Source: a virus | Length of the DNA stretch: 32,909 nucleotides | Virus record (IMG/VR): IMGVR_UViG_3300044568_001507 | Location: 1-32,909 of that record | Strand: one strand, 5' to 3' | Shown: piece after piece, positions 2,733 through 31,401 of the stretch | How the letters are laid out: each line of letters opens with the position of its first letter | Position numbering within the stretch: the stretch's first letter is position 1 | Notes under the pieces: model-generated | What the model was told of the DNA's origin: nothing | Database searches by the model: none | The model's input: only the letters and a program-made list of their open reading frames with translations | Program-made: the position numbers and the translations under genes

Positions 2733-3662
2733 ATGACAAGTCAAATCAACCCAAACAACGTAGACGGCACCTATCCAGTGGCTGGACAACCCAACAACAC
2801 ACAGGGGTTCAGAGACAACTTTACCAATATCAAAACCAATTTTAGTTATGCCGAAACTGAAATCACCGACTTACAAAACAATGGTATTTTCAAAGCTGCT
2901 CTAGCAGGTACCACTTTAAACAACAACATGGCGGATAACTTAATATATGCTGTTAAATTACAAGATGTCAGTTATACTTTTTTGCAAAATGCCGCAACTT
3001 CTGGGTCCATAGCCATTGACTACAGCGCCGGTCAATACCAATACATTTCGACTACAGGATCAATCAGTTTGAATTTCAATAACTTTCCTGTCAGTGGAGG
3101 TCAAGGCATCATACAAATTGCTGTAAATATCACCAGTACTGCATACACATTAACCCTACCTGCCGCGGTGAGTTTAGGTACCACTGGCCTTCAAGGTTAT
3201 GCATCAAATGTGATTACTTTTGCAGCCACAGGTACATATCAATTTGCATTTTCAACTGTGGATGGTGGTACCACTATTACTATCTATGATCTAAATCGAC
3301 CACTGCTGGGTAGCACCGAATCTGCTGTTGGTTATTCAACAGGCACAGGCGGTGCTGTTACCCAGATAACTAGTAAAGCAACTGGTGTCACACTCAATAA
3401 ACGCTGCGGTCAAATTACCATGAACAACGCCAGTTTGAATGCTGCCGCAGAAGTCAGTTTTACATTGACCAATAGTGTGATTACTGCCACAGATGTTGTA
3501 ATGATTTGTATCGGGTCTGGAGCAACCGCTGGTGCATACAATGTTCAGTGCGATGCAGTTGCAGCCGGCAGTTGTAGAATCTCAATAGGCAACATGAGTT
3601 CAGGCTCCCTAGGCGAAGCCATTGTGTTGAACTTTGTTGTTATCAAGGGTGTGGCTGCTTAA
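2733..3662 (+). CDS. Tail-fibre-like virion protein
   Basis: 309 aa. The N-terminus (NPNNVDGTYPVAGQPNNTQG, then FRDNFTNIKTNF) matches a head segment recurrent in structural proteins of marine T4-like phages; the rest is rich in Thr, Ser, Gly and Asn with repeated beta-strand-like stretches, as in fibres. Residues about 45-60 are a short helical linker and the last third (from about 200) may be a separate distal domain. No lectin or hydrolase motif is visible. It has an AGGA ribosome site and a late-type box upstream, fitting late expression. Its 3' end overlaps the convergent radical SAM gene by 20 nt. The function as an adsorption fibre is inferred from composition and the shared N-terminus. 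Confidence 0.7.
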   Translation: MTSQINPNNVDGTYPVAGQPNNTQGFRDNFTNIKTNFSYAETEITDLQNNGIFKAALAGTTLNNNMADNLIYAVKLQDVSYTFLQNAATSGSIAIDYSAGQYQYISTTGSISLNFNNFPVSGGQGIIQIAVNITSTAYTLTLPAAVSLGTTGLQGYASNVITFAATGTYQFAFSTVDGGTTITIYDLNRPLLGSTESAVGYSTGTGGAVTQITSKATGVTLNKRCGQITMNNASLNAAAEVSFTLTNSVITATDVVMICIGSGATAGAYNVQCDAVAAGSCRISIGNMSSGSLGEAIVLNFVVIKGVAA

Positions 3663-4629
3663 ACAGTTCCGGAAATGTGGCACGCCAATTTGTGCCACGA
3701 CGTTGATCAATAGAATCCAGGGTAGCAATTATTTTGGATTTTCTTTTGTCTGCATCTTTTAATGCAAACACACCATGAGTTAGTTGTTGTCTATGCTCTA
3801 TTGGGTCTGTAAATCTTGTGGTATGGAAATTATGTTGCAGCCATGTTAGCAATGTGTCCAGGTTGGCATGATTTAAAATCCCAACCGATGTGTTGATTGC
3901 AAACATACAATTATGCGGCGCATTATCAATATACCATTGCAAATTATCTGTTACCTGAACCCACTTTGCAGGGAACCGTTGGTATTCAAATCTTTCACCA
4001 ACGTCATCGATACTGAAATCAAGTTGCACTAACTTAAATTGCCCCCACAAATTCAACAACTCTTCATTTGGTAATATAGTTCCATTGGTATTGTAGTTTA
4101 AGTGTACTTGATTTTTATGTTCAATAGCATACAACAATTTCACATGCTCTTTACTCAGCAACGGTTCTCCGCCATTGAAACGTATAAATTGCATATCACT
4201 CAAATCGATAGTTTTCCAAAACTGATTGGCTGATGACTTTTGTAATTCTATAGGTAGTCCAAGTTCTTGCTTCCACACACTACTGTTATCCGGTCCGCAT
4301 ATTACACAGGCCAAATTACAGGTGTCACCGGTCCAGTAATCCATACGAACTAGCTCAACCTTATTATTGTCAAGGTCGTGGTCTTTATACCAAGAGTTAC
4401 TACCTTGCCGACGGCTTGTTAGTCCAGCAGCTTCGGCATTTTTACAACTACTACAAGCTGTTGGTAACTGTCCAGTAGATGCCTCATTGCGAAGGCTAAC
4501 AAGATATTCGTTGTTTAAAAAATCAACTACTTCAGCTGAGCGTATAGGAGATATACAACAAGGTGAAATTGCTAATGCATTTTGCCGAGCAACAATGTTT
4601 ATATTTTTAAAAATGTCAATGCATGTCAT
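3643..4629 (-). CDS. Radical SAM protein with N-terminal Cys-rich half (copy 1)
   Basis: 328 aa. The radical SAM cluster motif CxxxCxxC is C104/C108/C111 (CNLACVIC), followed by the SAM-binding GGEP at 153-156. Before it are C24, C25, C59 and C62 (CSSC), an arrangement like a SPASM/twitch auxiliary Fe-S site but placed N-terminally. Such enzymes cleave SAM to a 5'-deoxyadenosyl radical; the substrate here is unknown. Its ATG overlaps the stop of the helicase gene (ATGA), so it is probably translated with primase and helicase. It is similar in layout to the proteins at 29142-30308 and 31398-32363. It converges on, and overlaps by 20 nt, the fibre gene. The superfamily assignment is firm; the product is not. 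Confidence 0.85.
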   Translation of the reverse strand: MTCIDIFKNINIVARQNALAISPCCISPIRSAEVVDFLNNEYLVSLRNEASTGQLPTACSSCKNAEAAGLTSRRQGSNSWYKDHDLDNNKVELVRMDYWTGDTCNLACVICGPDNSSVWKQELGLPIELQKSSANQFWKTIDLSDMQFIRFNGGEPLLSKEHVKLLYAIEHKNQVHLNYNTNGTILPNEELLNLWGQFKLVQLDFSIDDVGERFEYQRFPAKWVQVTDNLQWYIDNAPHNCMFAINTSVGILNHANLDTLLTWLQHNFHTTRFTDPIEHRQQLTHGVFALKDADKRKSKIIATLDSIDQRRGTNWRATFPELFKQPHP

Positions 4630-6104
4630 TGAGATTTAATTTGTCCTAGTAACTGTTTTAATTTTGCACTTTGCACATCTGCTGTGACTTTTTCTGCAAT
4701 TTCAGGTTTTAATTCTTTGCCACCTGGTTGATAATCCCAAGCGTGTGTTCCTGTTGGCTTTTCCCACTTGGTAGATGCACTATCCGTTGTTTCAGGGTCA
4801 GCAGTCCTAAGTTGGCTCTTGGCCTTGATTGAGTCCATAATAGAGCTTTGAGGTTTGTTGTATCCAGTTCCTTCGTCACCGCCTTCATCAGTAATGCGCA
4901 TGGTTTCAATGTTGTACTCCAGGTCAATCTTTTGACCAACACCTGTTGAACTACGCGATTTCATACACTGGATCTGATACTTGCCACGCTCTTTCATGGC
5001 ACGACTTGTAAAGATACCAAACACGTTGTCGGCAGTATTAATCTTAGAGATACCACCCGAAATATGGCTATGATCAAATTCTATTTCCTCTACTGCACTA
5101 CGGTTCAACTGCGAAGCAGTGACCATTAGTACTGCCAACTCTTTGGCCAAGTTACGCAGTTCTTCACTCACATACTTGTCTTTCACAAACAAGTCGTTGG
5201 GCGAGACCTTGGCACTCACAGGCATCAGCAAGTCCAAGTAGTCAATCATCACAAAGTCTACCTTCTTGCCTGTTTGAATTTGATACTCTTTCAAATACGC
5301 ACGAATATCATTGATGTTGCTTTGTGCCGGCAGTCCTTTGACCTGATAGTTGCCGCTCTTTTTAGCCACAAGTTTAACTTTGAGTTCAGTTGTATCAATA
5401 TCTTTGCGAATGTCTTTGGTGCTCATGTTGGTCAACATGGCATCTGTTCGCAAACTTGTGAGTTCTTCTGAAAGTTCCAGTGTGATGTAAACGCCACTCA
5501 ATCCTTGTTGCAACCAGTTCAGTGCAATGTTCATCATAACCAAGCTCTTGCCAGAACCTGATCCACCGGCAAAGATGTTTAGTTCGCCCCTACTGAATCC
5601 GCCATACAACAATCTATCCAGTTGTGGCCAGCCTGTTGTTACTTGCCCGCCCGAGTTAAAGTATTTCTCAATGCGAGCCTTAGGATCAGCAAAGTAATCC
5701 GTGCCCATGTCTTTAGTAAGTGATATCTGTACTGCATCTTTGATAAGTTTTTCAACTGGTTCAAACTCGCCCTTTTCCAACAAGTCTGCTGATTTTAAAA
5801 TTGCACGTTCAAGTTCTTGACGTCGAGTAAATGCTTCAAACTCGCCCATGAACCAGTCAAAGTGGCCTTCATTCAAATCTGGCACTGCGGCAAGTTTGAC
5901 GCCTGTGGTTGCACTTATTTGCATCCTGTCAGGCATGGTCTTGTGTTTGTCTGAGTGTTCTTTAATAAACTCCGCCGCTGGCCTTAGACTTCGGTCAAAG
6001 TTCTGCGGGTTGTAGATGTTTTGAACACGCACATAACTTGTGGCGTCTTCCAGCATCATTTCTAGAAATAGTCGTTGGACGTCAAGTCCGTATTCTTTTA
6101 ACAA
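4626..6104 (-). CDS. 41: Replicative DNA helicase, T4 gp41-like (DnaB family)
   Basis: 492 aa, near the length of T4 gp41. The N-terminal third is helical, like the DnaB collar/primase-binding region. The RecA-like motor has Walker A GGSGSGKS (180-187), Walker B ending in MIDYLD (D288) and the conserved TASQLNR (329-335, Q332). The C-terminal 60 residues are low-complexity and charged. It unwinds DNA at the fork as a hexamer, loaded with primase on the lagging strand. The start lies inside the last 23 nt of the primase gene, and the stop shares ATGA with the radical SAM gene, so all three look co-translated. The order primase-helicase is the reverse of T4 but the pairing fits. Confidence 0.93.
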   Translation of the reverse strand: MLKEYGLDVQRLFLEMMLEDATSYVRVQNIYNPQNFDRSLRPAAEFIKEHSDKHKTMPDRMQISATTGVKLAAVPDLNEGHFDWFMGEFEAFTRRQELERAILKSADLLEKGEFEPVEKLIKDAVQISLTKDMGTDYFADPKARIEKYFNSGGQVTTGWPQLDRLLYGGFSRGELNIFAGGSGSGKSLVMMNIALNWLQQGLSGVYITLELSEELTSLRTDAMLTNMSTKDIRKDIDTTELKVKLVAKKSGNYQVKGLPAQSNINDIRAYLKEYQIQTGKKVDFVMIDYLDLLMPVSAKVSPNDLFVKDKYVSEELRNLAKELAVLMVTASQLNRSAVEEIEFDHSHISGGISKINTADNVFGIFTSRAMKERGKYQIQCMKSRSSTGVGQKIDLEYNIETMRITDEGGDEGTGYNKPQSSIMDSIKAKSQLRTADPETTDSASTKWEKPTGTHAWDYQPGGKELKPEIAEKVTADVQSAKLKQLLGQIKSQ

Positions 6105-7071
6105 GTTGTTTTTTCCTTATTTCTATTTTGATTCGGCTGGTTTCTCGTGCTTGCATAATAGTTAGCAAGGCTCCTAGTCGTCCTAGTTTTATCACAGCGT
6201 CATTAACATCTTTACAACCCGCCGGCCATTCAGGTATGCTCACTGCCCAGCCCAGTTCCACAGCACGATCAATCAATTCCACACCGGCTGTGTCTTGATC
6301 TGGCACCACAGTTACTTCACGTCCTAGACTGCGAATCAATCTTGCTTGTGCATCACTGATGGTGTTATGCATGACCGCAAGTCCACCGATTGAGAGTGCA
6401 TCAAAGATACCTTCCATCACCAGTACATGTTGCCAATCAGCACATTGCAAGTCTGTGCCAAACACGTAACCCGGTTGCGAGTGATTGATATACCGGGGCT
6501 GTTTGTCATCCAGGAATCTAGCACACCAGCCTATCACTCGATTATCATATGTGAACGGTACCAGCACAAACGGCCTTGTCCAATGAACACCATCAGTTTT
6601 GATAGAAGTCATTATGGGAAAGTCTTCGGGCACGCCGCGCCGGCGTATGTAATCCCAGAAAAGTGGATGCTCAGGTGTGACCACTTCCGTGAACGGAGGA
6701 AAGTCATCTGAGTCTTCAAATTCAATAGCACTCAACGCATTGAATACTCGTTGCCGATCTTCCAAGATGCCGTGTATGCTACGATGCCGCAGACTTTCAA
6801 GATTGAGCATGTCAATCTCGTTATCTGGCACACCCATCCACCCTAGTAATCGTCTGGCTTTGAAACTGACTGTGCGTCCCAGAATGAAACTGGCTGTGTA
6901 TGAGCAGTTGAAGCAGTGATAACTCCAGCCTGATTCGGTCGCCTTGATGCCACCACGCCCACGTCGGTCTGGGCTGTTGCCATTATGGGTGCAACATACC
7001 GCATTGAAACTCAGCCAGCCCTGTGGACTGGGTTTTCTTTTTGCAGGTAGGTAGGCAAGGATATCTAGCAT
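6082..7071 (-). CDS. 61: DNA primase, T4 gp61-like
   Basis: 329 aa. The zinc-binding domain has C26/C27, H29, C53 and C56 (CCTHN and CFNC). The TOPRIM domain has the catalytic glutamate in VLVMEGIFDA (E220) and DxD in VPDQDTAG (D258, D260). It makes RNA primers for Okazaki fragments with the gp41-type helicase encoded directly downstream (23-nt overlap). A sigma-70-type promoter with a TATAAT box ends just before the ATG (7078-7106), so expression probably begins early. Length and domain order match phage primases. Confidence 0.92.
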   Translation of the reverse strand: MLDILAYLPAKRKPSPQGWLSFNAVCCTHNGNSPDRRGRGGIKATESGWSYHCFNCSYTASFILGRTVSFKARRLLGWMGVPDNEIDMLNLESLRHRSIHGILEDRQRVFNALSAIEFEDSDDFPPFTEVVTPEHPLFWDYIRRRGVPEDFPIMTSIKTDGVHWTRPFVLVPFTYDNRVIGWCARFLDDKQPRYINHSQPGYVFGTDLQCADWQHVLVMEGIFDALSIGGLAVMHNTISDAQARLIRSLGREVTVVPDQDTAGVELIDRAVELGWAVSIPEWPAGCKDVNDAVIKLGRLGALLTIMQARETSRIKIEIRKKQLVKRIRT

Positions 7072-7077
7072 CTGTTG

Positions 7078-7106
7078 ATTATAACAGATTAGTTACACTA
7101 GATCAA
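7078..7106 (-). promoter_or_regulatory. Sigma-70-type promoter of the primase-helicase operon
   Basis: The minus strand reads TTGATC (7106-7101), a 17-nt spacer, then TATAAT (7083-7078), with TGT before it giving an extended -10. It lies between the fibre-like gene and the primase; the expected start of transcription is at or within a few bases of the primase ATG at 7071, so the leader would be almost absent. Confidence 0.65.
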
Positions 7107-8173
7107 CGATATTGAACGTTTTCGATCTTGCCGTTTGTGAAAATTGCTGTTGCGGCAATTGACCCCTGGAATTGAATTGGCAAGTACCCCGAACCACCAT
7201 TCACAATGGTCACTCCAGAAATTTGGCTGTTGTCACCAATAGTACAGGTTGCAACGGCGCCAGATCCTGTGCCGAGAATTTGAATGCTGGGTGCAGCCAC
7301 GTAATAATAACCTGCGTTGGTGATGCTTATACCAGTGACCACTCCGTTGGTGACCTGTACATTGCCCGAGGCTCCGTATCCAATAGAATTGTTCAAGGCC
7401 AATCGCAACAGGGGGTGAAAACCAATCACGTTGAAATAATCAGTCACTGTTTCACTCAGGTACTGTCTGGTTTCGGTAACATCATACCAAACTGACTCAT
7501 AGTTGTCTGCAGCCTGCACTTTCACTGTGCCGGTGTAGGTATCTAGATCAAACTTTACTGTGGTCAGGCTGGCACCATTGGTGGGCATGTGGCTGCTGTA
7601 GAATTCAGTTTGTTGAATAGAGTTCTGTGGTTGTGGTGTGAGTGCCCAGTCAGGATATTGTGTGGGAGCGGTGCCCACAAAGTTGTTTTTGCCATACGTG
7701 TCCGGCACTGTACACTCAGCACTGGGCACAAACTGTGGAAATATGCTGTCTACTATGTTACAATCAGCACGAGCTTGCGAGTTGGCATCCACATACACTG
7801 CCTGCACATAGTTACCAGCACTACGTTGTATGCTGTAGCTGGCCGGCTGTGCTTGAATATTGATAGTATCTGTAGAATCCAACACCACTTTGACTCTGCC
7901 CAGTGCTGAACTCAAGATTTCCATGTCTTTGGTAATCAGGAGTTCATCGCCTGCTTGATTTACCACACGAAAGACAAAACTAGAACCTGCAATGTTCACC
8001 GGTTTCTGGTCTTGATTTATGAATTCAAAGAGTAGAACATTGTCCACTCCCTTGTTTATTGTCAGTTGTTTTGCGTACACAGGATCGTACCTCGCTGTAA
8101 AATACCCACCACTGGTGTCTACCAAAAGTACTCGTACAAGTTGTTGATATAGATAGGCGGTAGTGGAATACAT
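7103..8173 (-). CDS. Virion protein, fibre or baseplate-like
   Basis: 356 aa. Residues about 30-130 form a beta-rich domain (KGVDNVLLFEF through VQAVYVDANS) resembling N-terminal baseplate/fibre attachment domains of phages. The C-terminal 100 residues contain two copies of a Gly-rich repeat of the type VTGISITNAGYYYVAAPSI and ISGVTIVNGGSGYLPI, common in marine phage fibres. No membrane segment is seen. A CTAAATA box lies 4 nt before the ATG, suggesting late expression as a nearly leaderless mRNA. It is followed by, but separated by a promoter from, the primase operon. A structural role is inferred from these repeats and beta-rich composition. Confidence 0.65.
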   Translation of the reverse strand: MYSTTAYLYQQLVRVLLVDTSGGYFTARYDPVYAKQLTINKGVDNVLLFEFINQDQKPVNIAGSSFVFRVVNQAGDELLITKDMEILSSALGRVKVVLDSTDTINIQAQPASYSIQRSAGNYVQAVYVDANSQARADCNIVDSIFPQFVPSAECTVPDTYGKNNFVGTAPTQYPDWALTPQPQNSIQQTEFYSSHMPTNGASLTTVKFDLDTYTGTVKVQAADNYESVWYDVTETRQYLSETVTDYFNVIGFHPLLRLALNNSIGYGASGNVQVTNGVVTGISITNAGYYYVAAPSIQILGTGSGAVATCTIGDNSQISGVTIVNGGSGYLPIQFQGSIAATAIFTNGKIENVQYR

Positions 8174-8218: not shown

Positions 8219-8596
8219 ATGGGAAACAACATTTTTGACAAATTGACAGAAAAATATCCTTTCATCACATTGTGCTTGTATGCCAATGCAGAATATGTGG
8301 GAGTAGTGCAGAACAGAGATGACGTTGTGACCACCATCTACGACTTCGGGGCAGTGACAGATCAAGATTCTAAACTGGTGTTTTTAGAACTGGCCAACAC
8401 CTGGTGGTGGGAAAGCAACAGATCAATTCCTATAAATGTGTTTTTAAGAGGAGATTGGAATCAGTTTCGTTATACCTTGCGAACTTTTGTCAACAAAGAT
8501 CTTGAAATTCTGCATGGGCCTGCTTGCAGTTTGTTGGACATAGTGCGCAGAAAAGGCAAGCGAAAGTCAATTACGCTGGTACGGCGTCTTGATTAA
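8219..8596 (+). CDS. Conserved-type hypothetical protein, 125 aa
   Basis: Monocistronic plus-strand gene between two minus-strand runs. The protein is mixed alpha/beta with aromatic stretches (ELANTWWWESNRSIPINVFL, residues 61-80) and a basic tail (RRKGKRKSITLVRRLD). I do not recognise a domain. A near-consensus late box lies just upstream, so late expression and a virion or assembly role are plausible but unproven. Its last 26 nt overlap the convergent mini-polymerase gene. Confidence 0.65.
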   Translation: MGNNIFDKLTEKYPFITLCLYANAEYVGVVQNRDDVVTTIYDFGAVTDQDSKLVFLELANTWWWESNRSIPINVFLRGDWNQFRYTLRTFVNKDLEILHGPACSLLDIVRRKGKRKSITLVRRLD

Positions 8597-9140
8597 TCAA
8601 ATTCATGTGTAGTGCCACCAAGGCCGCGTAAGAAATACTATGACTTTTTTTGAATGTGTAGCCTTTTGATTCGTCCCCGTCCCATACTGACGCAAATACC
8701 TCATCCCAAGGACGAGTCTGTAAGTGTGCCTTGCCAGGGCGTATAATGGATATAAAAGCAGCCATCCTGGGGATTGAATCCGGTTTCATCACCCGTAGCA
8801 AATCTGTGTAATTGCCCACGTGTACCAGTTGACTAGCCCAGGCATGATCTGTCCACAGTCTTTCCCAAGGTGGCGTGGCTGTGAGCATGGCTTCATAGTG
8901 TGCAGGATCTCGGACCAACTGATACACACTCATGTTCAAGAAGTCCAGTTTAAAATACCCACGCTGTTCTGCTTCTTCGTAATCTATTGCGGCACATTGA
9001 TTAACAGGATCCCAAGGAATGTCTGTGACATACACACCCGAGTTGTGCTTTCTTCCGTTGCTTTGTCGTGCAGGCACATGCTGAATAAGTTTCAGTATGT
9101 CTTCTCTGTTGGCAAAGTCTAAATCAATGTCTGCGCTCAT
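8571..9140 (-). CDS. Miniature DNA polymerase III alpha (DnaE)-like protein
   Basis: 189 aa. The motif series of bacterial replicative polymerase alpha subunits appears in the right order but compressed: ADIDLDF (3-9, compare PDFDVDF with the two catalytic Asp), RKHNSGVYVT (30-39, compare GKHAGGVVIA), KLDFLNM (64-70, compare KFDFLGL with the third catalytic Asp, here D66), ISIIRPG (130-136, compare ALFRPG) and FKKSHSISYA (163-172, compare FNKSHSAAYA). The family normally exceeds 1,100 aa; the PHP domain, most of the fingers, the beta-binding and OB domains are absent. The ATG overlaps the preceding stop (ATGA), so the catalytic motif is truly at the N-terminus. It could be an active mini-polymerase, an accessory or inhibitor mimicking host DnaE, or a relic. 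Homology by motif is strong; function is inference. Confidence 0.75.
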   Translation of the reverse strand: MSADIDLDFANREDILKLIQHVPARQSNGRKHNSGVYVTDIPWDPVNQCAAIDYEEAEQRGYFKLDFLNMSVYQLVRDPAHYEAMLTATPPWERLWTDHAWASQLVHVGNYTDLLRVMKPDSIPRMAAFISIIRPGKAHLQTRPWDEVFASVWDGDESKGYTFKKSHSISYAALVALHMNLINQDAVPA

Positions 9141-9502
9141 TCGGTATCCACCAATGCGGCCACAATTCGAACTTGTTCTTCAGCCTTTGCTACTGCTTCT
9201 AATGCATTTTCTACACTTGGGTGTTTGGCCGCAAGTTCTTTGATACGATTTTCTTCATGTATTTTTTCTCTAGCCCAGTTTAGTATAGCCTGCACCTCGC
9301 CTGTGAGTTCAACTGTGGGATATGCGCTATTCATCATTAACCAACTGTTGCCATCATAAACTTCTATGCATTGACTGCTTCCGTTGTAGCGCATTTGCCC
9401 TACTAAAGAATTGCCAGAAGGTGTGTTGTAAAAACTGGGCCAGGAAGAAGAATAATTATTGTTGATTGTTATTCCATTGCCGCCATTTATGTTTTTGATC
9501 AT
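9137..9502 (-). CDS. Small virion-associated-like protein, 121 aa
   Basis: Residues 1-55 are Asn/Gly/Ser-rich (NGGNGITINNNYSSSW, then GQMRYNGSSQCIEVYDGNSW), the style of a fibre or whisker surface strand; 68-121 form a charged helical tail (VQAILNWAREKIHEENRIKE). AGGA precedes the ATG. The stop overlaps the start of the mini-polymerase gene as ATGA. A structural role is suggested only by the Asn/Gly-rich half and is uncertain. Confidence 0.55.
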   Translation of the reverse strand: MIKNINGGNGITINNNYSSSWPSFYNTPSGNSLVGQMRYNGSSQCIEVYDGNSWLMMNSAYPTVELTGEVQAILNWAREKIHEENRIKELAAKHPSVENALEAVAKAEEQVRIVAALVDTE

Positions 9503-9503
9503 A

Positions 9504-10178
9504 TTACCATCCTGCCTTGTTTAATATATCTTTCACATACTCTTGGTCTGCTGGGTAGTTTACAAACTTCTTTTGCCAAGCGTCTGAATCAATGTAGGGC
9601 CACACCATGGCCACTTGCTCTGTACTCAGTTCACTCAGGAACTTTTGTCCTGATTCACTGTTGTAAATCACCCAAGGACTTATACGTCCGGCTGTGACAG
9701 CATAACATAAACTATTGGTATTGCCATAACGCATCCAATCATGTGGGGGATTGCCAGTTTCTTCTGCCCAACGTATGCTGTGCTCTATTGCTCGAGCCAA
9801 GGCATCATCTACTGCTTCCACACGCAGGTATTCTATCAAGTACTCTGTGTAGATTTTGTCACTGCACCAATGATCAATTTTCTTTTGTGCTTTCAGCAAC
9901 CAGGTCATAAAACGTGCGGGCGCAATCACATGTGTGTTTACACAATAGTTGCCAAACTTGACAAACGCTCGATAATAAGGTGAGTCACAAAAGTCATCAT
10001 GTGTTTTGTTTCGGGCCGAGCCTTGCATGGTTTCATAGAATCGGATGTAGGCTTGGAAGCCTATGCGTACACCTGCTTCGTCTCGAGCCAGTCTTCTGCG
10101 CTTGGGCTCACAGGAATGCACCAACAGTGAAGTTTCTTTAATAAAAGTTTTTTTGCAATACTCGCACACAAAGCTCAT
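9504..10178 (-). CDS. Zinc-finger hypothetical protein of T4-like phages
   Basis: 224 aa. The N-terminus has C5, C8, H21 and C23 (CEYC then LLVHSC), a C2H2-like zinc knuckle, followed by a basic KRRRLARDEA helix. The rest is helical and aromatic, with a conserved-looking GRISPWVIYNS. I recall proteins of this shape in cyanophages without an assigned function. Nucleic-acid or protein binding through the zinc knuckle is plausible. Its ATG overlaps the stop of the SGNH-like gene (ATGA), placing it in the gp62 operon. Confidence 0.7.
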   Translation of the reverse strand: MSFVCEYCKKTFIKETSLLVHSCEPKRRRLARDEAGVRIGFQAYIRFYETMQGSARNKTHDDFCDSPYYRAFVKFGNYCVNTHVIAPARFMTWLLKAQKKIDHWCSDKIYTEYLIEYLRVEAVDDALARAIEHSIRWAEETGNPPHDWMRYGNTNSLCYAVTAGRISPWVIYNSESGQKFLSELSTEQVAMVWPYIDSDAWQKKFVNYPADQEYVKDILNKAGW

Positions 10179-10903
10179 GCTAATACTTTATGCTCTTGGA
10201 TGTAGTTTGTCAAATAGTCGTTAATCAAAGCATGATGCCCGCTTGCTGGATGTGTCATATCTGCTGGCACATACTGTGACCCCGGGGCATAATTCGTGGG
10301 CTGAACCTTTTGTTCATGCTGCCAGGCAATAGCTCGCCACTCGAAATCGTTGATGATTTCGGGACGTTGAAACAATTTTAGTCTAGGATTATCTAAATGG
10401 TCCTGGTACAAGTTATCTGCTTGCTGAAACATCAACACTCGATGCCCACGGCTTTGCAAATCAGTAATTGTTGCAAGCATACGATACATTAAATCTTCAG
10501 TGCGATCTAAAATGCTAAACACTTCACTCTTGAGTTTGATTTTTACAAACTGATCTGAGTCTTCTTGTGCCCAGCCATGTTGCCAGCGTGACTTAAACTC
10601 TTGATTTTGAGGGTTGACCCATCTACCTTCAAATTCATTTTCTGGTTCGCAAATTGGTATTTCAAGTCTTGACACAAATGTCATGCCCAGCACATAAAAC
10701 ATAGGCTGAGTTGCTTGATGACTGTGTTTGAGAGTGGTGCGCAGTATTCTGCTGTTGGCACTACCCCCGATGGCCAAGGTAGATGCTTGTGGTATATTAA
10801 ATTTGCCTATAAATCCTAGACGTCGGGCTAGGTCAATGTGGCCGCCGCCGTGGGCATAACTTTCCATATAGCTACACCCGTTGACAACCACATGTTCAAT
10901 CAT
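10175..10903 (-). CDS. SGNH-hydrolase-like protein
   Basis: 242 aa. VNGCSYMES (7-15, S11) resembles block I of SGNH/GDSL enzymes with Cys in place of Asp, IGGSANSR (about 45-52) may supply the Gly/Asn blocks, and DMTHPASGHH near residue 215-224 resembles the C-terminal DxxH block. Members are esterases or acyl transferases acting on sugars and lipids. No signal peptide is seen, so it would act in the cytoplasm. It sits between gp62 and the zinc-finger gene with ATGA overlaps on both sides. The fold assignment is by motif only; the substrate is unknown. It could work with the glycan genes further upstream. Confidence 0.6.
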   Translation of the reverse strand: MIEHVVVNGCSYMESYAHGGGHIDLARRLGFIGKFNIPQASTLAIGGSANSRILRTTLKHSHQATQPMFYVLGMTFVSRLEIPICEPENEFEGRWVNPQNQEFKSRWQHGWAQEDSDQFVKIKLKSEVFSILDRTEDLMYRMLATITDLQSRGHRVLMFQQADNLYQDHLDNPRLKLFQRPEIINDFEWRAIAWQHEQKVQPTNYAPGSQYVPADMTHPASGHHALINDYLTNYIQEHKVLA

Positions 10904-11346
10904 TTTTTGTCATTACCAGCGGCACGGTTGTATGTGTCAATTTCTTTTTGTGTTGTGATCTCACACATGACGTCTATCTCGTCATCTTTGTAGGTGGGAT
11001 ACATTGCTATCAGTGCTTTGCGTTTGGCACTGAGTCCTGCTTCTTTTTTCTTGGGCGCTATCCAAGGATGTCGTGGTGTGCCCATACCTGGACTTACGCT
11101 TGTGGCCATGAGCCAGTGTAGTTTAGGATGCTTACTCACATCAAAGAAGTGTTTGTTCAGGCGCTCATTGCAACTGATAACATAGAACTCTTGTAATTCT
11201 CTTGAACCTTCTACTGCTGATCCCCAACGTATCATGAGATAGTTTGAAAACTTCTTGCGCTCTTCTGGGGTCAAGTCGTCGTAGAATGTTCTGACCTTGC
11301 GGTCAAACATACGCATCTCGTTGGCAATGTTCAGTTTATCACTCAT
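10900..11346 (-). CDS. 62: Clamp-loader small subunit, T4 gp62-like
   Basis: 148 aa, a typical size for cyanophage gp62. Features I associate with that family are visible: FYDDLTPEERKKFSNYL near the N-terminus, RWGSAVEGSRELQEFYV, NERLNKHFFD, KHPKLHWLMA and TPRHPWIAPKKK. gp62 works with the gp44 ATPase to load the gp45 sliding clamp for the phage polymerase; genes 44 and 45 are not in the window. It overlaps the preceding 101-aa gene by 8 nt and the SGNH-like gene by 4 nt (ATGA). The tail ends in a charged DKK. Confidence 0.8.
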   Translation of the reverse strand: MSDKLNIANEMRMFDRKVRTFYDDLTPEERKKFSNYLMIRWGSAVEGSRELQEFYVISCNERLNKHFFDVSKHPKLHWLMATSVSPGMGTPRHPWIAPKKKEAGLSAKRKALIAMYPTYKDDEIDVMCEITTQKEIDTYNRAAGNDKK

Positions 11347-11644
11347 CAGTCTTGGTCAGTCGGTAGATCATTATAGCATGATCCAGTGAATCTTGTAAAG
11401 TGGGATTGGTCTTTGCGGCACGCCGGATCTCAGTCCACATCTTGTCTTCCATAATGTGATCGTGTAAAGGTCTGCCGTCGTTTGTTCTTGAATCCCATTG
11501 ATGTGGTATCTTTTGTCCTGTGATAGGATCATAATCATATCCTACTACTGTTCGATTACCTGGATCAGCGCCAAACTCCCGAGCATAAACCACACCATTG
11601 GCACGTTCGTATATGTACTTGGTGTCAGGTTTGAGTTGCGACAT
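11339..11644 (-). CDS. Conserved-type hypothetical protein, 101 aa
   Basis: The first half is beta-like (KYIYERANGVVYAREFGADP, then VVGYDYDPITG), the second helical (EIRRAAKTNPTLQDSLDHAI). It has the appearance of a conserved small protein of T4-like marine phages, but no function is known to me. I considered RegA, the translational repressor often near gene 62, and see no match. The start shares TAATG with the 166-aa gene upstream and the stop overlaps gene 62 by 8 nt, so the three are probably translated together. Confidence 0.65.
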   Translation of the reverse strand: MSQLKPDTKYIYERANGVVYAREFGADPGNRTVVGYDYDPITGQKIPHQWDSRTNDGRPLHDHIMEDKMWTEIRRAAKTNPTLQDSLDHAIMIYRLTKTDE

Positions 11645-12144
11645 TACCAGGCCAGATTGTAGTTGACAATTTCACAGTTGCGACTGACATCTTTCACAAA
11701 GTACACACAGTCAGGTTCAGCGTCATCGTTCAAGGGTACGGCCAACATCTGACCGTTCTTGAGTTTGGGTGCGTACCAGTTGACTTCATGATACACATCT
11801 AGGATTTCGATGTCGGGGAAACTGGGTCTGTAACTGCTGAGTGGGTTGAATTGGAATACCTTGAAGCCTCTATCATTGATCGAAGTCAACGGTAGCACTT
11901 CCAGGTCACCAACATCGGGTTCACCAATCAAGATCTGCCAGTCCATGGGCATCTTGAGAGTTTGTGTTCCTATACGCAATACCAGGGCAGGTGCATTGAA
12001 CGATTCTAAGAAGATTAGCGGAATAAAATGATAATCGGGGTCTGCTGGGTTAGAATTATCCAGTATGGCAAAACGCATGTCATCAACTTCTTCAGGCAAG
12101 TGATTTAGATCGTAGTAGGTATTGTCCAGTGTTAGTATTCGCAT
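11644..12144 (-). CDS. Conserved-type hypothetical protein, 166 aa
   Basis: A beta-rich acidic protein: DDMRFAILDNSNPADPDYHF, then FIPLIFLESFNAPALVLRIG, LKMPMDWQILIGEP, EVLPLTSINDRGFKVF and a final YFVKDVSRNCEIVNY. It resembles a conserved unknown of T4-like phages; I cannot name a function. It leads a short operon (166 aa, 101 aa, gp62, SGNH-like, and on) and has its own promoter at 12151-12179, so its products are probably made with the replication proteins. Confidence 0.65.
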   Translation of the reverse strand: MRILTLDNTYYDLNHLPEEVDDMRFAILDNSNPADPDYHFIPLIFLESFNAPALVLRIGTQTLKMPMDWQILIGEPDVGDLEVLPLTSINDRGFKVFQFNPLSSYRPSFPDIEILDVYHEVNWYAPKLKNGQMLAVPLNDDAEPDCVYFVKDVSRNCEIVNYNLAW

Positions 12145-12150
12145 AGTTGT

Positions 12151-12179
12151 ATGTTACAGGATTGTGATTGAAAAGTCAA
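12151..12179 (-). promoter_or_regulatory. Sigma-70-type promoter before the gp62 operon
   Basis: The minus strand reads TTGACT (12179-12174), 17 nt, then TAACAT (12156-12151). The -35 overlaps the uvsW stop codon. The predicted start of transcription lies at or next to ATG 12144, again giving almost no leader. Confidence 0.5.
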
Positions 12180-13645
12180 GCAATCTTCATCCACTCTAGT
12201 TTCTCTGCTGAAAAAGGATAGTTGGCTTCCCGGTAGAACTGCTTGCGTTTGGTCAAGTGTCGCTTGGCAAACTTGCAGGTTGAGGTAATGTCCCAAATTT
12301 GCACATGATCTTTGTCTTCTGCTTTTCGGATGCCCCTACCAATACTTTGGATAACCCTAACAAAGCTCTTACCGGGCTCAATAAGCACGAGATTAAAAAT
12401 TCGCGGTATGTTAATTCCAACCGCTGCCACACCGTAAGTGGCCACAATGATTTTGTCTGTTGAGTCTGCAATTTGATCATATTCTTCTTGCCTTTTTGTT
12501 CCTTTTGTTGCGCCCGATACAAACACTGCTTTGTCTCCCAGTCGTGCAACCAATTCATTGCCGGCGACAACTCTGTCTACCAGTACCAGGGTGTTGCCTG
12601 TTTCGTTTACCCGGCGTATGAGGTCAGCCATGGTGTCCAATCGGCCCGACTCTTCCAGCAGGTATTTAAGTTCACTTTGATACTCTTTGTACTCCACATG
12701 GTCTACCAATTGCACAATGTTCACATGGCAGTTGGCCAACACCCCTTGCTGTTGTAGTTCGTCGGCACTGAGTCGACCAATAACTGGCCCAAGCCCTACC
12801 AGCAATGCCTGGCTCTCAAACTTCTCTTTGGGAATAGTTCCGGTCAAACCCCAGCGAATTGGCACTCTAGCCATCACACCTGTCAGCAGAGTTTTGAGTG
12901 CATCTGCTTTGGCCATGTGTACTTCGTCTACGATAACGCATACCACACCTTCCAAGAACTCGTCAATGGTCACTTCGCCTGTGCCTGCTTTGGTATTCTT
13001 CAACAGTATGTTTAGACTTTGCCAAGTACAAATAGTATGCTGGCGTCCATATTCTTTTCTGTCGCCAAAGAACACACCAACATCTTGTTCCATGTTGATA
13101 TAATCTTTTTCTGTTTGTGTCACTAGACTTTTGTTGGGCACAATAACAATGCTTCGTCCATATGGTGTGACAGCATTGGATAAGGCCGCTGTCATGATTG
13201 TTTTACCTGCGCCTGTGGCCACTTCTTGTAGGCACTGTGGATTGGCCAGAAAGTTGTTCACAATGTCAACTTGATAGTCTCGCATAACTATAGGCTCGCC
13301 CGCAGCAGGGTGGCCATTGGGCCACGTGATGTGCGCAAACGAATCCTCACGCACTTGTTCAAACTCGAATGAGGTAGAGTATTCTCTTTGATCATCTATC
13401 TCAATGTCGTAATCAAACTTTTCAAGGATGGGAACAATCTCGGGCAACAAGTTTGTATATGTGCTGCCGCCCAGTTGAAAGTATGCAACCTTGCCATCCC
13501 AGCGTCCCAGTCTAACTGCTGGCATGTAACGTGCGGCTGGATTTTCGTACTTGAACGCAGTGACCAGGGCCTTGCGAACATCCAAATCTAGTCCTTCTAG
13601 TTTGATGTTTACTTCATCCTTGATTTGTATTATGCATCTTTTCAT
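12176..13645 (-). CDS. uvsW: UvsW-like RNA-DNA and recombination helicase
   Basis: 489 aa, close to T4 UvsW. N-terminal DNA-binding region has RLGRWDGKVAYFQLGG (45-60). Helicase motifs: ATGAGKT (143-149), VDEVH (239-243), WGLTGT (265-270) and QSIGRGIRKAEDKDH near the C-terminus (motif VI). In T4 it drives branch migration and fork reversal and unwinds R-loops at origins, helping the switch to recombination-dependent replication. I start at ATG 13645, which overlaps the upstream stop as ATGA, rather than 13669. A sigma-70-type promoter for the following operon begins inside its stop. Confidence 0.92.
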   Translation of the reverse strand: MKRCIIQIKDEVNIKLEGLDLDVRKALVTAFKYENPAARYMPAVRLGRWDGKVAYFQLGGSTYTNLLPEIVPILEKFDYDIEIDDQREYSTSFEFEQVREDSFAHITWPNGHPAAGEPIVMRDYQVDIVNNFLANPQCLQEVATGAGKTIMTAALSNAVTPYGRSIVIVPNKSLVTQTEKDYINMEQDVGVFFGDRKEYGRQHTICTWQSLNILLKNTKAGTGEVTIDEFLEGVVCVIVDEVHMAKADALKTLLTGVMARVPIRWGLTGTIPKEKFESQALLVGLGPVIGRLSADELQQQGVLANCHVNIVQLVDHVEYKEYQSELKYLLEESGRLDTMADLIRRVNETGNTLVLVDRVVAGNELVARLGDKAVFVSGATKGTKRQEEYDQIADSTDKIIVATYGVAAVGINIPRIFNLVLIEPGKSFVRVIQSIGRGIRKAEDKDHVQIWDITSTCKFAKRHLTKRKQFYREANYPFSAEKLEWMKIA

Positions 13646-14505
13646 TGTATTGTCGCTTGTTGTACCCATTGCCGTTTGGCAATATCGGCTAGTAATTGAT
13701 CACGGTTGCCTGTGTAAATCAAATCTGCGACCGGGAACCTTTGTGGTCGTGCTTGTGTATTATACACGTTTGTGATGCTGTGAGCAAGGAAAAAGTCACG
13801 GTGCTGATCAATATACTGTTGCACTTTGCCATAACGTTCAGTTAGATCTTGATCGTGAAACTGTACGTTAAAGTCGGCGCTGTAATACCCAAAAGGTCGG
13901 AACGCATCATCACCTATGTACTTATCGTTATCATTGGCCAGATCCTCAACGGTTTTTCCAATCTCACAATAGTTAAGATACACAGTACCGAACTTGATTT
14001 GATTATCGCCGTATTGCTCCTGGAGTGCCAGATCCAAACAATTTGTCTTGGGCATGCCATACCAAGTGCAAACCAATCTCGGTTGTGTACCTTCAGCCGC
14101 TGTTTCACATCTGTGTACCGCTAGGTTCAATTCTGCCAAGGCTCGACGAACCTTATCAGGGGCACGGTTCCAGTAATCAGTATTTTGTTGATCTAACAAT
14201 CCGTGATAGCGTTCAAATATGTTATGCAAATAGTTGAGACAGTCTTGTGTGTACTCAAACGGTCTGTGTATTATGACTTCATGACTGTTGATAATGGCAA
14301 TACAACTTTGGATATACTCTACTGCACGAGCCTGCTCTTGTGCTGGAGTGCCAAATCCATAAAATCTATCTGGGTGGTCCAGGGGATAATGGCCGCGGGC
14401 TTGCATGCGTTCTACCCATAATTCTGCTACAGGTGTTGAACGTATTTTAAATTCGAGTTCGAGATCTCTGTCTTGGCCCAGACGAATCAGCATGTGTTGC
14501 GGCAT
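13642..14505 (-). CDS. Hypothetical protein, 287 aa
   Basis: I do not recognise a family. The protein is acidic and aromatic, with helical N-terminal and central parts (ARAVEYIQSCIAIINSHEVI; KVRRALAELNLAVHRCE) and a C-terminal part with FGYYSADFNVQFHDQD and DLIYTGNRDQLLADI. It is coupled to uvsW by ATGA. Two overlapping sigma-70-type promoters end at the ATG (14504-14540), so either a leaderless mRNA is used or translation starts at Met5 (14493), giving 283 aa. Tandem terminator-like hairpins separate it from the upstream genes. Confidence 0.6.
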   Translation of the reverse strand: MPQHMLIRLGQDRDLELEFKIRSTPVAELWVERMQARGHYPLDHPDRFYGFGTPAQEQARAVEYIQSCIAIINSHEVIIHRPFEYTQDCLNYLHNIFERYHGLLDQQNTDYWNRAPDKVRRALAELNLAVHRCETAAEGTQPRLVCTWYGMPKTNCLDLALQEQYGDNQIKFGTVYLNYCEIGKTVEDLANDNDKYIGDDAFRPFGYYSADFNVQFHDQDLTERYGKVQQYIDQHRDFFLAHSITNVYNTQARPQRFPVADLIYTGNRDQLLADIAKRQWVQQATIQ

Positions 14506-28107: not shown

Positions 28108-29158
28108 CTGCTGTTTCCTCCAGAGTACTTACCTCTGCTTTCTGATTTCCAAAATCTGCCATGACCTTGTCAAGACAGCCGTCATCATTCTTTTCCCATG
28201 CTTTGCGGAACTTCTTGATAACTTCACCGTCGCTTGTGGTAAACACCAGACTATTGCCTTCACGCTTGAGCATTTCTTTCTTTTCAATCAAATCAACCAA
28301 GCCCGAGTATGGACTCATACCTGTTGTATAAGGAATCTTCACTTGCACGCCTTCAAAGGGTTTGGCATAGCGTGTTTTCATAACTTTACAGCCGGCACGG
28401 ATACCGTTTACTTCAGATACTTTGTTGCCATCTTCGTCTTCTTTCAACTTCATCTTTTTCATAGCAACCACAATAGAACTTGCGTAGATAAAGCCTTGGC
28501 CTCCAGAGATCTTGTCGTCTGGATCAAACATATCTTGTGATGCGTATGTATGGTTGGTACAAACCAGACCTACATTGTAACTACCAAACATGTTCACACA
28601 GTTACGAACCAAGGCAGTAAGTGCTTTGGGTTTACGACCCAAGTCACCTTTCATTTCACCTGCATCAAACTGGTTCACATCAGTGGGAGTCAACAACATG
28701 CCTAGACTGTCGATCACAAACATAACTTTAGGGCGCTCGCCCTCGGCTAGTGCTTTGTAATCGCTCATGAATGTTGAAATTGTTTTGGCCACATCATCAA
28801 TCATGGCCATACTCAATTTAAGCAGTTTGCTTTCGCTGGTATCAACCCCAAGTGCTTTGAGCCAGTCCTCGTCGAGGGCGTTTTCTGAATCAATCAACAC
28901 AACAAAGATGCCTTGCTCTTGTGCATTCTTTACAATGTTGCCTGAACAGATGTAACTTTTGCCTGCGCCAGAATCACCAGCAAACACAGTGACCTTGCCC
29001 AATGGAATGCCTCGATTAAAGTCTCCAGAGATCAAATAGTTCAAGGCATAGTTGCCTGTTGATATCCAGTCTGTAGGATCGTTAAAGCCAATCGACAGTC
29101 CGTCAATGCTCTTGGTGATTTCCTTGCGGAATTTGCTTACGTCAAATGGTTTTCCCAT
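28100..29158 (-). CDS. uvsX: UvsX, RecA-like recombinase
   Basis: 352 aa. Walker A GDSGAGKS (61-68), Walker B MFVIDSLGML, a VCTNHTY loop and GGQGF in the DNA-binding L2 region are RecA/UvsX-type. It drives strand exchange for recombination-dependent replication and repair, with UvsY and UvsW. AAGGACA precedes the ATG at a spacing of about 6 nt. The start lies in the last 17 nt of a radical SAM gene. Confidence 0.94.
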   Translation of the reverse strand: MGKPFDVSKFRKEITKSIDGLSIGFNDPTDWISTGNYALNYLISGDFNRGIPLGKVTVFAGDSGAGKSYICSGNIVKNAQEQGIFVVLIDSENALDEDWLKALGVDTSESKLLKLSMAMIDDVAKTISTFMSDYKALAEGERPKVMFVIDSLGMLLTPTDVNQFDAGEMKGDLGRKPKALTALVRNCVNMFGSYNVGLVCTNHTYASQDMFDPDDKISGGQGFIYASSIVVAMKKMKLKEDEDGNKVSEVNGIRAGCKVMKTRYAKPFEGVQVKIPYTTGMSPYSGLVDLIEKKEMLKREGNSLVFTTSDGEVIKKFRKAWEKNDDGCLDKVMADFGNQKAEVSTLEETADE

Positions 29159-30308
29159 AGTTTATGTCCTTATAAAAATCTTTAAAAATTGTCCGGCTGT
29201 CTAAGTTTCTTCTTTGATCTAGTTGTTGTATTCTGTGCAATGTGTCAGGTAGTGTTGATTCAAAAGGTGTTTGCGTGTGTCTAAGTAGGTTTTGATACCC
29301 GTCCTCGAGCAAATATCCTGGTTTCAAATCTATACGACATTGTATTTCTCTTCCAAGCGATTGTAACACATGTTTTGGTAGTTGTCTAGTGTCTAGCCAA
29401 TCGGGCCCAAGTGTTGCTGTCAAAATAAAACTATTTGGATGAAATCCTTGTGCCAAAAAGTAATCAATGCACTCAAAAATTGCAGTATGATTAAAAACGC
29501 ACCAAACCATATTGAATGTGAGTTTGTGTGGCAACTGCCTGACACGTTCTAAATTTTCCAAAAAATCTTTCCAAACACCGCCGTACCTCATGTACTCGAA
29601 TTTATCTCCCATACTTTCCGCACTCACAGTCCAATGGACATTTTTAAACTGACAGATTAGATCCATTACATTGGTATCAGTTTTGCTGAGATTTGTGTTT
29701 ACTCTTAGTTCTACTTCAGGATTTTTTTCCAACAATAACTCTAACATCTCTGCGTTTTCTTTGATCAACAAAGGTTCTCCGCCGGCCATGTAAACGTTTT
29801 TTATTTGATGTAGATTGTCAAGCACATAAGACTTGAGTTCTTGTATACGTTGCTCACTCGGTGTATCAACTACAATATTTAATTCGCTGGCCCATTTGCT
29901 ACTCAACACAGGACCGCAGTAAACACAAGCATGATTGCAAGTATTTCGCCATCTGATATCAAGTTGTTGTAGATTGAATTTTTCAGGGTCGTCATACAGT
30001 GAGGTATCAACTTTTTTCAATTGTTTCATGTAATACACACGACTGCTAACAATATTCGATAACGTTTTACTTTCTTCTAGTTCATAACAATAGGAACAAG
30101 TATGTGGTTTTTGTTTGTCAAGCATTTGCTGTTTGACCTTGGTATTGGCCGGGCCAGTTAATATATCTTGTATACTGTTATTTTTTAAATTTCCAATACT
30201 TTCTCTACTGCAAATACAATTTTTAACGTCACCGCTGATGTCAGTATAAAAACCAGTCCACGGCAACGGACAAAATGCTTTGTTTGTTACAATATCTTTT
30301 GGAGTCAT
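29142..30308 (-). CDS. Radical SAM protein with N-terminal Cys-rich half (copy 2)
   Basis: 388 aa. CxxxCxxC at C124/C128/C131 (CNHACVYC), AGGEPLL near 175-181. The N-terminal half carries C13, C31, C33, C71 and C74 (CPLPW, CICS, CSYC), resembling an auxiliary SPASM/twitch Fe-S site but before the radical domain. The substrate is unknown. ATGA overlap with the SDR gene upstream and 17-nt overlap with uvsX downstream show co-translation with a core gene. Confidence 0.88.
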   Translation of the reverse strand: MTPKDIVTNKAFCPLPWTGFYTDISGDVKNCICSRESIGNLKNNSIQDILTGPANTKVKQQMLDKQKPHTCSYCYELEESKTLSNIVSSRVYYMKQLKKVDTSLYDDPEKFNLQQLDIRWRNTCNHACVYCGPVLSSKWASELNIVVDTPSEQRIQELKSYVLDNLHQIKNVYMAGGEPLLIKENAEMLELLLEKNPEVELRVNTNLSKTDTNVMDLICQFKNVHWTVSAESMGDKFEYMRYGGVWKDFLENLERVRQLPHKLTFNMVWCVFNHTAIFECIDYFLAQGFHPNSFILTATLGPDWLDTRQLPKHVLQSLGREIQCRIDLKPGYLLEDGYQNLLRHTQTPFESTLPDTLHRIQQLDQRRNLDSRTIFKDFYKDINYGKTI

Positions 30309-30844: not shown

Positions 30845-31401
30845 TCTAGTAGGTGTGTGGGCTGATTATGGAAAGTAAAACTTGCTATAATTCTGGGTGT
30901 TACTGATGGATTTTGTTTTATAACTTCATGCGGTATTCTTGAATGAAAGATCATTGGCTTGGACATGTCATACACTTCACCTGCTAGAATCAATGCCTCT
31001 TTGGGTATTTCTTGTGCATCTTCAACTGAGTGTCCGAATTTAGTAATTGTTAATGGTATTTCAGTAACCCGGTCACTGATATAATACCAGCGATTGACCC
31101 ACCCATCAGTATTGATCACTGGAAAATTAATCTTGGCTACCATTGGTGCAGGATCTATATGTAATGCTAGATCATCATCAAGTATTGTGATTGCACTATC
31201 TCTTATGTATAGTTTTTGATCTAAAAAATATTGTAACAACTCAGGAACTGCATCCAATACTTGTTTAGAGTCTAAAAAATGCCACCCACTTATTCCGCTT
31301 TGTAAAATTTCTGTTTTGTCTTTTATAAAATTGTACAGTCCAGATGATATAATATCAACGTTGTCACATTCTAGTATCAAAAATGGTTTTAACTTATTCA
31401 T
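30841..31401 (-). CDS. 2OG-Fe(II) oxygenase-like protein
   Basis: 186 aa; ATG 31401 chosen by ATGA overlap. LALHIDPAP (78-86) supplies HxD (H81, D83), followed by a strand-rich core and FHSRIPHEV (152-160) for the distal His and R170 in PRIIASF for 2-oxoglutarate, the order of an aspartyl/asparaginyl hydroxylase-like fold. Such enzymes hydroxylate amino-acid, sugar or small-molecule substrates. Assignment is by motif only; the metal ligands fit. Confidence 0.6.
   Translation of the reverse strand: MNKLKPFLILECDNVDIISSGLYNFIKDKTEILQSGISGWHFLDSKQVLDAVPELLQYFLDQKLYIRDSAITILDDDLALHIDPAPMVAKINFPVINTDGWVNRWYYISDRVTEIPLTITKFGHSVEDAQEIPKEALILAGEVYDMSKPMIFHSRIPHEVIKQNPSVTPRIIASFTFHNQPTHLLE

What the first reader, a model, noticed from the sequence alone, without database searches (positions are those of the whole stretch)
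8571..9140. A 189-aa compressed DNA polymerase III alpha core in a T4-type phage
Five DnaE signature blocks occur in order, with both Asp of DIDLDF, the third Asp of KLDF (D66), the GKH-like, RPG and KSHSxxYA blocks. The spacing is far shorter than in DnaE, and PHP, most of the fingers, beta-binding and OB parts are missing. The gene begins precisely at the catalytic motif through an ATGA overlap, so this is not a visible truncation. T4-type phages normally use a family B polymerase. It may be a minimal enzyme, a DnaE mimic that binds host clamp or tau, or a domesticated relic.
Basis: partly seen in the sequence, partly recalled or inferred. Interest (0 to 1): 0.87.

Follow-up and report, generated by a model that had tools for sequence, protein, structure and literature searches.

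The report
Half of a split phage DNA polymerase
This small phage gene encodes one half of a stripped-down copy of the bacterial replicative DNA polymerase, whose other half is made by a separate, distant gene; the arrangement was predicted for giant phages in 2021 and has apparently never been tested in the laboratory.

Summary
The minus-strand ORF 8571-9140 encodes a 189-aa protein carrying DnaE (Pol III alpha) motifs, and its predicted fold matches only DnaE among solved structures. It is not a whole compressed core, though: it is the C-terminal, metal-binding half of a split minimal Pol III alpha. The dNTP-binding "GRGSS" half (~175 aa) is a separate gene that stops at the point corresponding to E. 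coli alpha ~393; this half starts at D401. All 32 large relative records have the N half and a family B polymerase, and 30 of 32 have this half. The catalytic Asp are invariant in 199 distinct sequences, and dN/dS is 0.07-0.15, so it is not a relic. The thumb, PHP, clamp-binding and OB/tau parts are absent. The window itself (a 32.9-kb fragment) has neither the N half nor a recognised family B polymerase. Iyer et al. 2021 (PMC7824862) already described this split minimal Pol III alpha in group 2.2 jumbo phages. Best reading: the halves assemble into one active site and work as an auxiliary polymerase, for primer extension or repair, beside the family B replicase. Activity is untested. New member of a known kind.

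The parts
8571..9140 (-). C-terminal (metal- and template-binding) half of split minimal DNA polymerase III alpha, 189 aa
   Evidence: phrog_11778 E=3.4e-51; fold matches only DnaE; 30 of 32 large relative records carry it
9117..9131 (-). DIDLD: D4, D6, D8, aligned by motif to E. coli alpha D401, D403, D405
   Evidence: D4 and D6 199/199, D8 198/199 distinct sequences; D401, D403, D405 invariant in the DnaE alignment
9036..9050 (-). KHNSG block (H32, G35), counterpart of E. coli GKHAGG (H511, G514)
   Evidence: H32 and G35 199/199; E. coli numbering
8943..8951 (-). K64-L-D66, counterpart of K553-F-D555 (third catalytic Asp)
   Evidence: K64 and D66 199/199; E. coli numbering
8730..8741 (-). 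R134-P-G-K137, counterpart of RPGP at 639-642 in E. coli alpha
   Evidence: R134 and K137 199/199; profile alignment
8640..8651 (-). KKSH block (H167), counterpart of the NKSH of GFNKSHSAAYA (H760)
   Evidence: H167 199/199; collinear with E. coli 740-767
9137..9502 (-). Upstream gene, 121 aa, 4-nt overlap with the polymerase half; weak matches to unknown PHROGs
9504..10178 (-). Syntenic neighbour phrog_11058, N-terminal sequence weakly like a C2H2 zinc finger
10900..11346 (-). Syntenic neighbour phrog_11758
11644..12144 (-). Syntenic neighbour phrog_11279
12176..13669 (-). UvsW-type DNA helicase, conserved in the neighbourhood
   Evidence: phrog_16 E=8.9e-74; synteny
8219..8596 (+). Convergent small gene phrog_11637, overlaps the 3' end of the polymerase half; conserved in the same place
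7103..8173 (-). Gene between polymerase half and primase; N-terminal part like phrog_1084
6082..7071 (-). DNA primase
   Evidence: phrog_47 E=3.8e-29; synteny
4626..6104 (-). DnaB/gp41-type replicative helicase
   Evidence: phrog_19 E=2.4e-70; synteny

Best explanation
The gene encodes the C-terminal half of a split, minimal family C DNA polymerase (Pol III alpha). The nucleotidyltransferase palm is divided between two unlinked genes. The N half supplies the GRGSS loop that in DnaE holds the incoming dNTP phosphates. This half supplies the metal-binding Asp (D4, D6, D66), K64, and the finger elements RPGK and KSH. Mechanism: the two proteins associate so that the N half's last residues (E-F-L) meet this half's first strand (DIDLDF), rebuilding one two-metal active site that neither half has alone. 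The enzyme lacks thumb, PHP, clamp-binding and OB/tau regions, so it should be short-patch and non-processive, with the phage family B polymerase doing bulk replication; the likeliest jobs are extending primers or repair. Shown by computation: homology, split point, pairing, residue conservation, selection, gene context. Inferred: physical assembly, catalysis, and role in the cell.
For: DnaE homology: (PF17657 finger domain in 26 of 71 members at E up to 0.1). The N half is DnaE too: PF07733 in 68 of 68 members, hhalign 95%, E=4.3e-8, ending at E. coli 392, profile hit to 320-393. N-half ORFs end 0-2 residues after the model end in 91 of 91 ORFs, and no fused ORF was found. N half in 32/32, C half in 30/32 and family B polymerase in 32/32 large records. 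Key residues invariant. dN/dS 0.07-0.15. C half sits with primase, helicase and UvsW; N half sits near the clamp loader.
Against: No activity or interaction has been measured. The N half is absent from the 32.9-kb window, so pairing for this very phage is inferred from relatives. No complex was modelled. The Foldseek match of the N half is weak (best E=0.057). The thumb and the RRAMGKK finger block of DnaE are absent, so grip on DNA is unexplained. Co-occurrence in one phage lineage could reflect shared core genes rather than a shared enzyme.
Confidence: 0.7

Rival explanations
1. The halves assemble into an active nucleotidyltransferase that is not a template-directed DNA polymerase, for example an end-modifying or nucleotide-signalling enzyme.
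For: Pol-beta-fold catalytic residues and the GS loop are kept while the thumb and a large part of the fingers are lost.
Against: Template-side elements RPGK and KSH are almost or fully invariant, and the gene lies between UvsW helicase and primase-helicase in distant phages.
Confidence: 0.15
2. A non-catalytic structural or regulatory protein, such as a scaffold or a mimic that binds host clamp or tau.
For: Small size; the gene just upstream in GAP32 is annotated as a virion structural protein.
Against: Catalytic Asp, Lys and His invariant in 199 sequences; the clamp- and tau-binding C-terminal region of alpha is absent (matched regions).
Confidence: 0.08
3. A decaying or domesticated relic of a host dnaE gene.
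For: Large parts of DnaE are missing.
Against: dN/dS 0.07-0.15; same split point across divergent relatives; present in about 90 phage records.
Confidence: 0.02
4. A single-chain minimal polymerase that works alone.
For: All three Asp are in this chain and the predicted fold is confident.
Against: The GRGS nucleotide-binding loop is in the N-half gene, which all 32 large records carry.
Confidence: 0.05

Closest known systems
Split minimal DNA polymerase III alpha of group 2.2 jumbo phages (Iyer et al. 2021, Viruses 13:63, PMC7824862)
   Different: Nothing essential. Added here: exact split point, pairing counts, dN/dS, thumb loss, many uncultured phages, and a 141-kb phage (Slickus01) with both halves.
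phrog_11778 (this half, 197 positions) and phrog_11127 (N half, 171 positions), both 'DNA polymerase'
   Same: Full-length match of the window protein to phrog_11778, E=3.4e-51; N half of a relative to phrog_11127, E=7.5e-38.
   Different: The PHROG hits as returned do not say that the two belong together.
Bacterial DnaE (Pol III alpha), e.g. E. coli 2hnh, Taq 2hpi
   Same: Palm strands with catalytic Asp, GKH-like block, RPG and KSH blocks in order; same fold.
   Different: No PHP, thumb, clamp-binding or OB/tau regions; about 360 aa in two chains against 1160 in one.
GAP32_282 / CBB_287 (C half) and CBB_328 (N half) of Cronobacter phage GAP32 and Pectobacterium phage CBB
   Same: Orthologues with conserved gene order; CBB_328 was noted as a 'truncated' Pol III alpha.
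   Different: About 38% identical to the window protein (GAP32); CBB_287 is annotated as a membrane protein.

Membership tests
Split minimal Pol III alpha (Iyer et al. 2021) | Stand-alone C-terminal Mg- and template-binding protein homologous to DnaE | tested here: met
Split minimal Pol III alpha (Iyer et al. 2021) | Separate N-terminal NTP-binding gene in the same genome | tested here: inconclusive
   Present in 32/32 large related records but not in the 32.9-kb window fragment
Split minimal Pol III alpha (Iyer et al. 2021) | Accompanied by a family B polymerase | tested here: inconclusive
   32/32 large related records; no family B polymerase recognised in the window fragment
Family C DNA polymerase (DnaE) | DxD plus third Asp in a Pol-beta-like palm | tested here: met
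   D4, D6, D66 199/199; fold match
Family C DNA polymerase (DnaE) | GRGS dNTP-binding loop in the same chain | tested here: not met
   Absent here; found in the N-half gene of relatives
Family C DNA polymerase (DnaE) | Thumb (about 433-510 in E. coli) | tested here: not met
   D6 to H32 is 26 residues against 108 (D403 to H511) in E. coli
Family C DNA polymerase (DnaE) | PHP, beta-binding and OB/tau-binding regions | tested here: not met
   The protein starts at D401 and ends just after the KSH helix
Family C DNA polymerase (DnaE) | Template-directed DNA synthesis | not testable with these tools
   Needs an enzyme assay

The most novel reading that the evidence does not exclude
A working DNA polymerase without a thumb, built from two unlinked ~180-aa proteins, that extends primers for or repairs behind a family B replicase, with the conserved neighbours (phrog_11058, 11279, 11758) acting as its missing DNA-gripping subunits.
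Probability: 0.15. Interest if true: 0.8.

Novelty: new member of a known kind. Interest (0 to 1): 0.42.

Why it matters
If the two halves reconstitute an enzyme, it would be among the smallest replicative-type polymerase cores, and a direct test of how much of Pol III alpha is needed for synthesis. It would also show that a bacterial-type and a eukaryote-like polymerase work side by side in one phage. The idea is already in print; what is open is the biochemistry.

Tried and rejected
Pfam with the window protein alone found nothing at E up to 10; the signal needed PHROGs, profiles or more divergent members. A search for fused single-chain versions among the fetched loci found none. Trans-splicing by a split intein was considered and rejected, because N-half ORFs end 0-2 residues after the model end. 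The C-terminal QMNLL/QLNLL-like sequence was considered as a clamp-binding motif and rejected, because by position it corresponds to the YQTLWL helix after KSHS in DnaE. Two weak PF07733 matches at CBB 53183-53395 and GAP32 56579-56737 lie in frames with stops and were not used. N and C half profiles are not similar to each other, so this is not a duplication. Matches in GTDB genomes are all in metagenome-assembled or uncultured bins, which I take to be phage contigs. No family B polymerase or N half was recognised in the window.

Full report
OBSERVATION. The ORF at 8571-9140 on the minus strand is real: 189 aa, ATG start, overlapping the stop of the upstream gene 9137-9502 by four bases. PHROGs assigns it to phrog_11778 'DNA polymerase' over residues 3-185 at E=3.4e-51, with weaker matches to the long phage DnaE families phrog_405, 11165 and 12219. 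Pfam alone finds nothing for this sequence, but 26 of 71 aligned relatives match the DnaE finger domain PF17657 at E up to 0.1, and the orthologues of phages CM1 and XacN1 pass its curated cut-off.

It is DnaE and nothing else. A profile of 17 family members finds only DnaE chains in the PDB, in four collinear stretches on E. coli alpha: 403-424, 539-558, 597-642 and 740-767 (whole-chain E=0.016, single stretches weak). A wider profile of 71 members gives weaker matches, again almost all DnaE. Profile-profile comparison with a DnaE alignment gives 95% probability and E=3.7e-8, while the two phage halves do not match each other. AlphaFold2 gives mean pLDDT 91.8 and pTM 0.83. The first 13 Foldseek hits in the PDB are all DnaE (best E=5.4e-4, probability 1.00), and every other listed hit has probability below 0.1. 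Among viral structure models the top hits that carry names are phage DNA polymerases, several named DnaE or Pol III alpha.

WHAT IS MISSING, AND WHERE IT IS. In DnaE the catalytic PDxDxD is directly preceded by the GRGS nucleotide-binding segment. This protein starts at DIDLDF, so that segment is absent. In relatives it is a separate gene. In phage CBB it is CBB_328 (172 aa), about 33 kb from CBB_287, the orthologue of the window gene. CBB_328 ends GLGRGSSVSSYCLYLIGLHLVDSIKYELDVNEFLKW. N-half profiles match E. coli alpha 320-393 and by hhalign end at 392 (95%, E=4.3e-8). PF07733 matches 68 of 68 aligned N halves. In 91 of 91 N-half ORFs the stop falls 0-2 residues after the end of the model, and no ORF in the fetched loci fuses the halves. 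The split point, between about E. coli 393 and 401, is therefore fixed across phages whose C halves are as little as 36% identical to the window protein.

PAIRING. In 32 large records (cultured phages, large IMG/VR contigs, and two MAGs), the N half is present in 32, this half in 30, and a family B polymerase in 32. Twenty-three records were chosen because they carry this half and all 23 have the N half. Nine were chosen for the N half and seven have this half; the two exceptions (262 and 289 kb) may be incomplete contigs. The two MAG records also contain bacterial sequence, so their counts are less clean. The halves lie from about 11 kb (Slickus01) to more than 200 kb (Phosso) apart. The window's own record is a 32.9-kb fragment with neither the N half nor a recognised family B polymerase, so pairing for this phage is inferred from relatives. 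A close large relative, IMG/VR contig G005 with a C half 83% identical, has the N half.

IS IT ALIVE? In 199 distinct sequences D4, D6, H32, G35, K64, D66, R134, K137 and H167 are invariant and D8 is 198/199. The N half keeps G-x-G-R-G-S in 85 of 85. dN/dS against twelve relatives is 0.07-0.15. This argues strongly against a relic.

ARCHITECTURE. By motif, D4/D6 correspond to D401/D403, H32 to H511, K64/D66 to K553/D555, R134 to R639 and H167 to H760 (E. coli numbering). The span D6-H32 is 26 residues against 108 in E. coli, so the thumb (433-510, established knowledge) is gone. The span between the RPG and KSH blocks is about 30 residues against about 120, so the RRAMGKK part of the fingers is gone. 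The PHP domain and everything after the KSH helix (clamp-binding, OB and tau-binding regions) are absent.

CONTEXT. Gene order UvsW helicase, phrog_11279, phrog_11758, phrog_11058, this gene, a convergent phrog_11637 gene, then primase and DnaB-type helicase is kept in Cronobacter, Pseudomonas, Vibrio, Agrobacterium and Sinorhizobium phages, with extra genes inserted in some. The N half lies close to the clamp-loader gene in CBB, XacN1 and a relative of the window phage. Both halves thus lie in replication neighbourhoods.

PRIOR ART. Iyer et al. 2021 (PMC7824862; [quoted passage not shown] The CBB paper noted CBB_328 as a truncated Pol III alpha (PMC5259590) and the Atu_ph07 paper a Pol III alpha subunit (PMC6102473). 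A 2024 survey of polymerase swapping showed no passage on it for the terms I searched (PMC11348598). I found no experimental test in the library, which holds open-licence papers only.

MECHANISM. Best reading: the two proteins dock where the DnaE chain would be continuous and rebuild one two-metal active site, with the GRGSS loop from the N half and the Asp, Lys and His from this half. Without a thumb or clamp-binding region it should be distributive, suited to extending primers or filling short gaps, while the family B polymerase does bulk synthesis. Shown by computation: homology, split point, pairing, conservation, selection, context. Inferred: docking, catalysis, cellular role. Confidence is 0.7 for the active split polymerase as a whole; the homology of the two halves to DnaE is near certain.

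VERDICT. A correct and perceptive observation, with the interpretation half right: the compressed core is one of two pieces, and the kind was already described. Interest is moderate, because the prediction is striking but published; the open part is the biochemistry.

Noticed in passing
L376:730-2403 (minus), in the 337-kb IMG/VR contig G026 of locus L292: A 557-aa single-chain compact DnaE (GS motif, PDIDLDF and thumb-length insert present, PHP absent) in a contig that also carries both split halves and a family B polymerase, so apparently three polymerases.
   Followed up: partly
L100 (Alishewanella phage vB_AspM_Slickus01, 141,644 bp, circular) and L377: Both split halves, about 11 kb apart, in a phage well below jumbo size, with the C half near a clamp-loader gene.
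   Followed up: partly
L342, L350 (335-kb and 153-kb contigs of a 'Neomarinimicrobiota' MAG), L349 (283-kb contig): GTDB species genomes hold these genes on contigs that look like jumbo-phage contigs binned into MAGs.
   Followed up: no
L087:4035-4685 (CBB_287) and L082:19950-20600 (GAP32_282): C-half orthologues carry a 'putative membrane protein' product or a transmembrane note, which looks like a misannotation.
   Followed up: no
CBB 53183-53395 (L094) and GAP32 56579-56737 (L095): Weak PF07733 matches (profile positions 151-226) in frames with stop codons; origin not explained.
   Followed up: no
window 3643-4629, 29142-30308, 31398-32363 (all minus): Three proteins matching the same radical SAM family (phrog_14086) in one 33-kb stretch.
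   Followed up: no
L382 (Bacillus phage vB_BauM_KLEB27-3), 2798-7168: Two genes annotated DNA polymerase III alpha separated by an HNH endonuclease gene, a different kind of split from the one reported here.
   Followed up: no
window 10175-10903 (minus): 242-aa protein beginning MIEHVVVNGCSYMESYAHGG, no PHROG or Pfam match, overlapping its neighbours by four bases.
   Followed up: no
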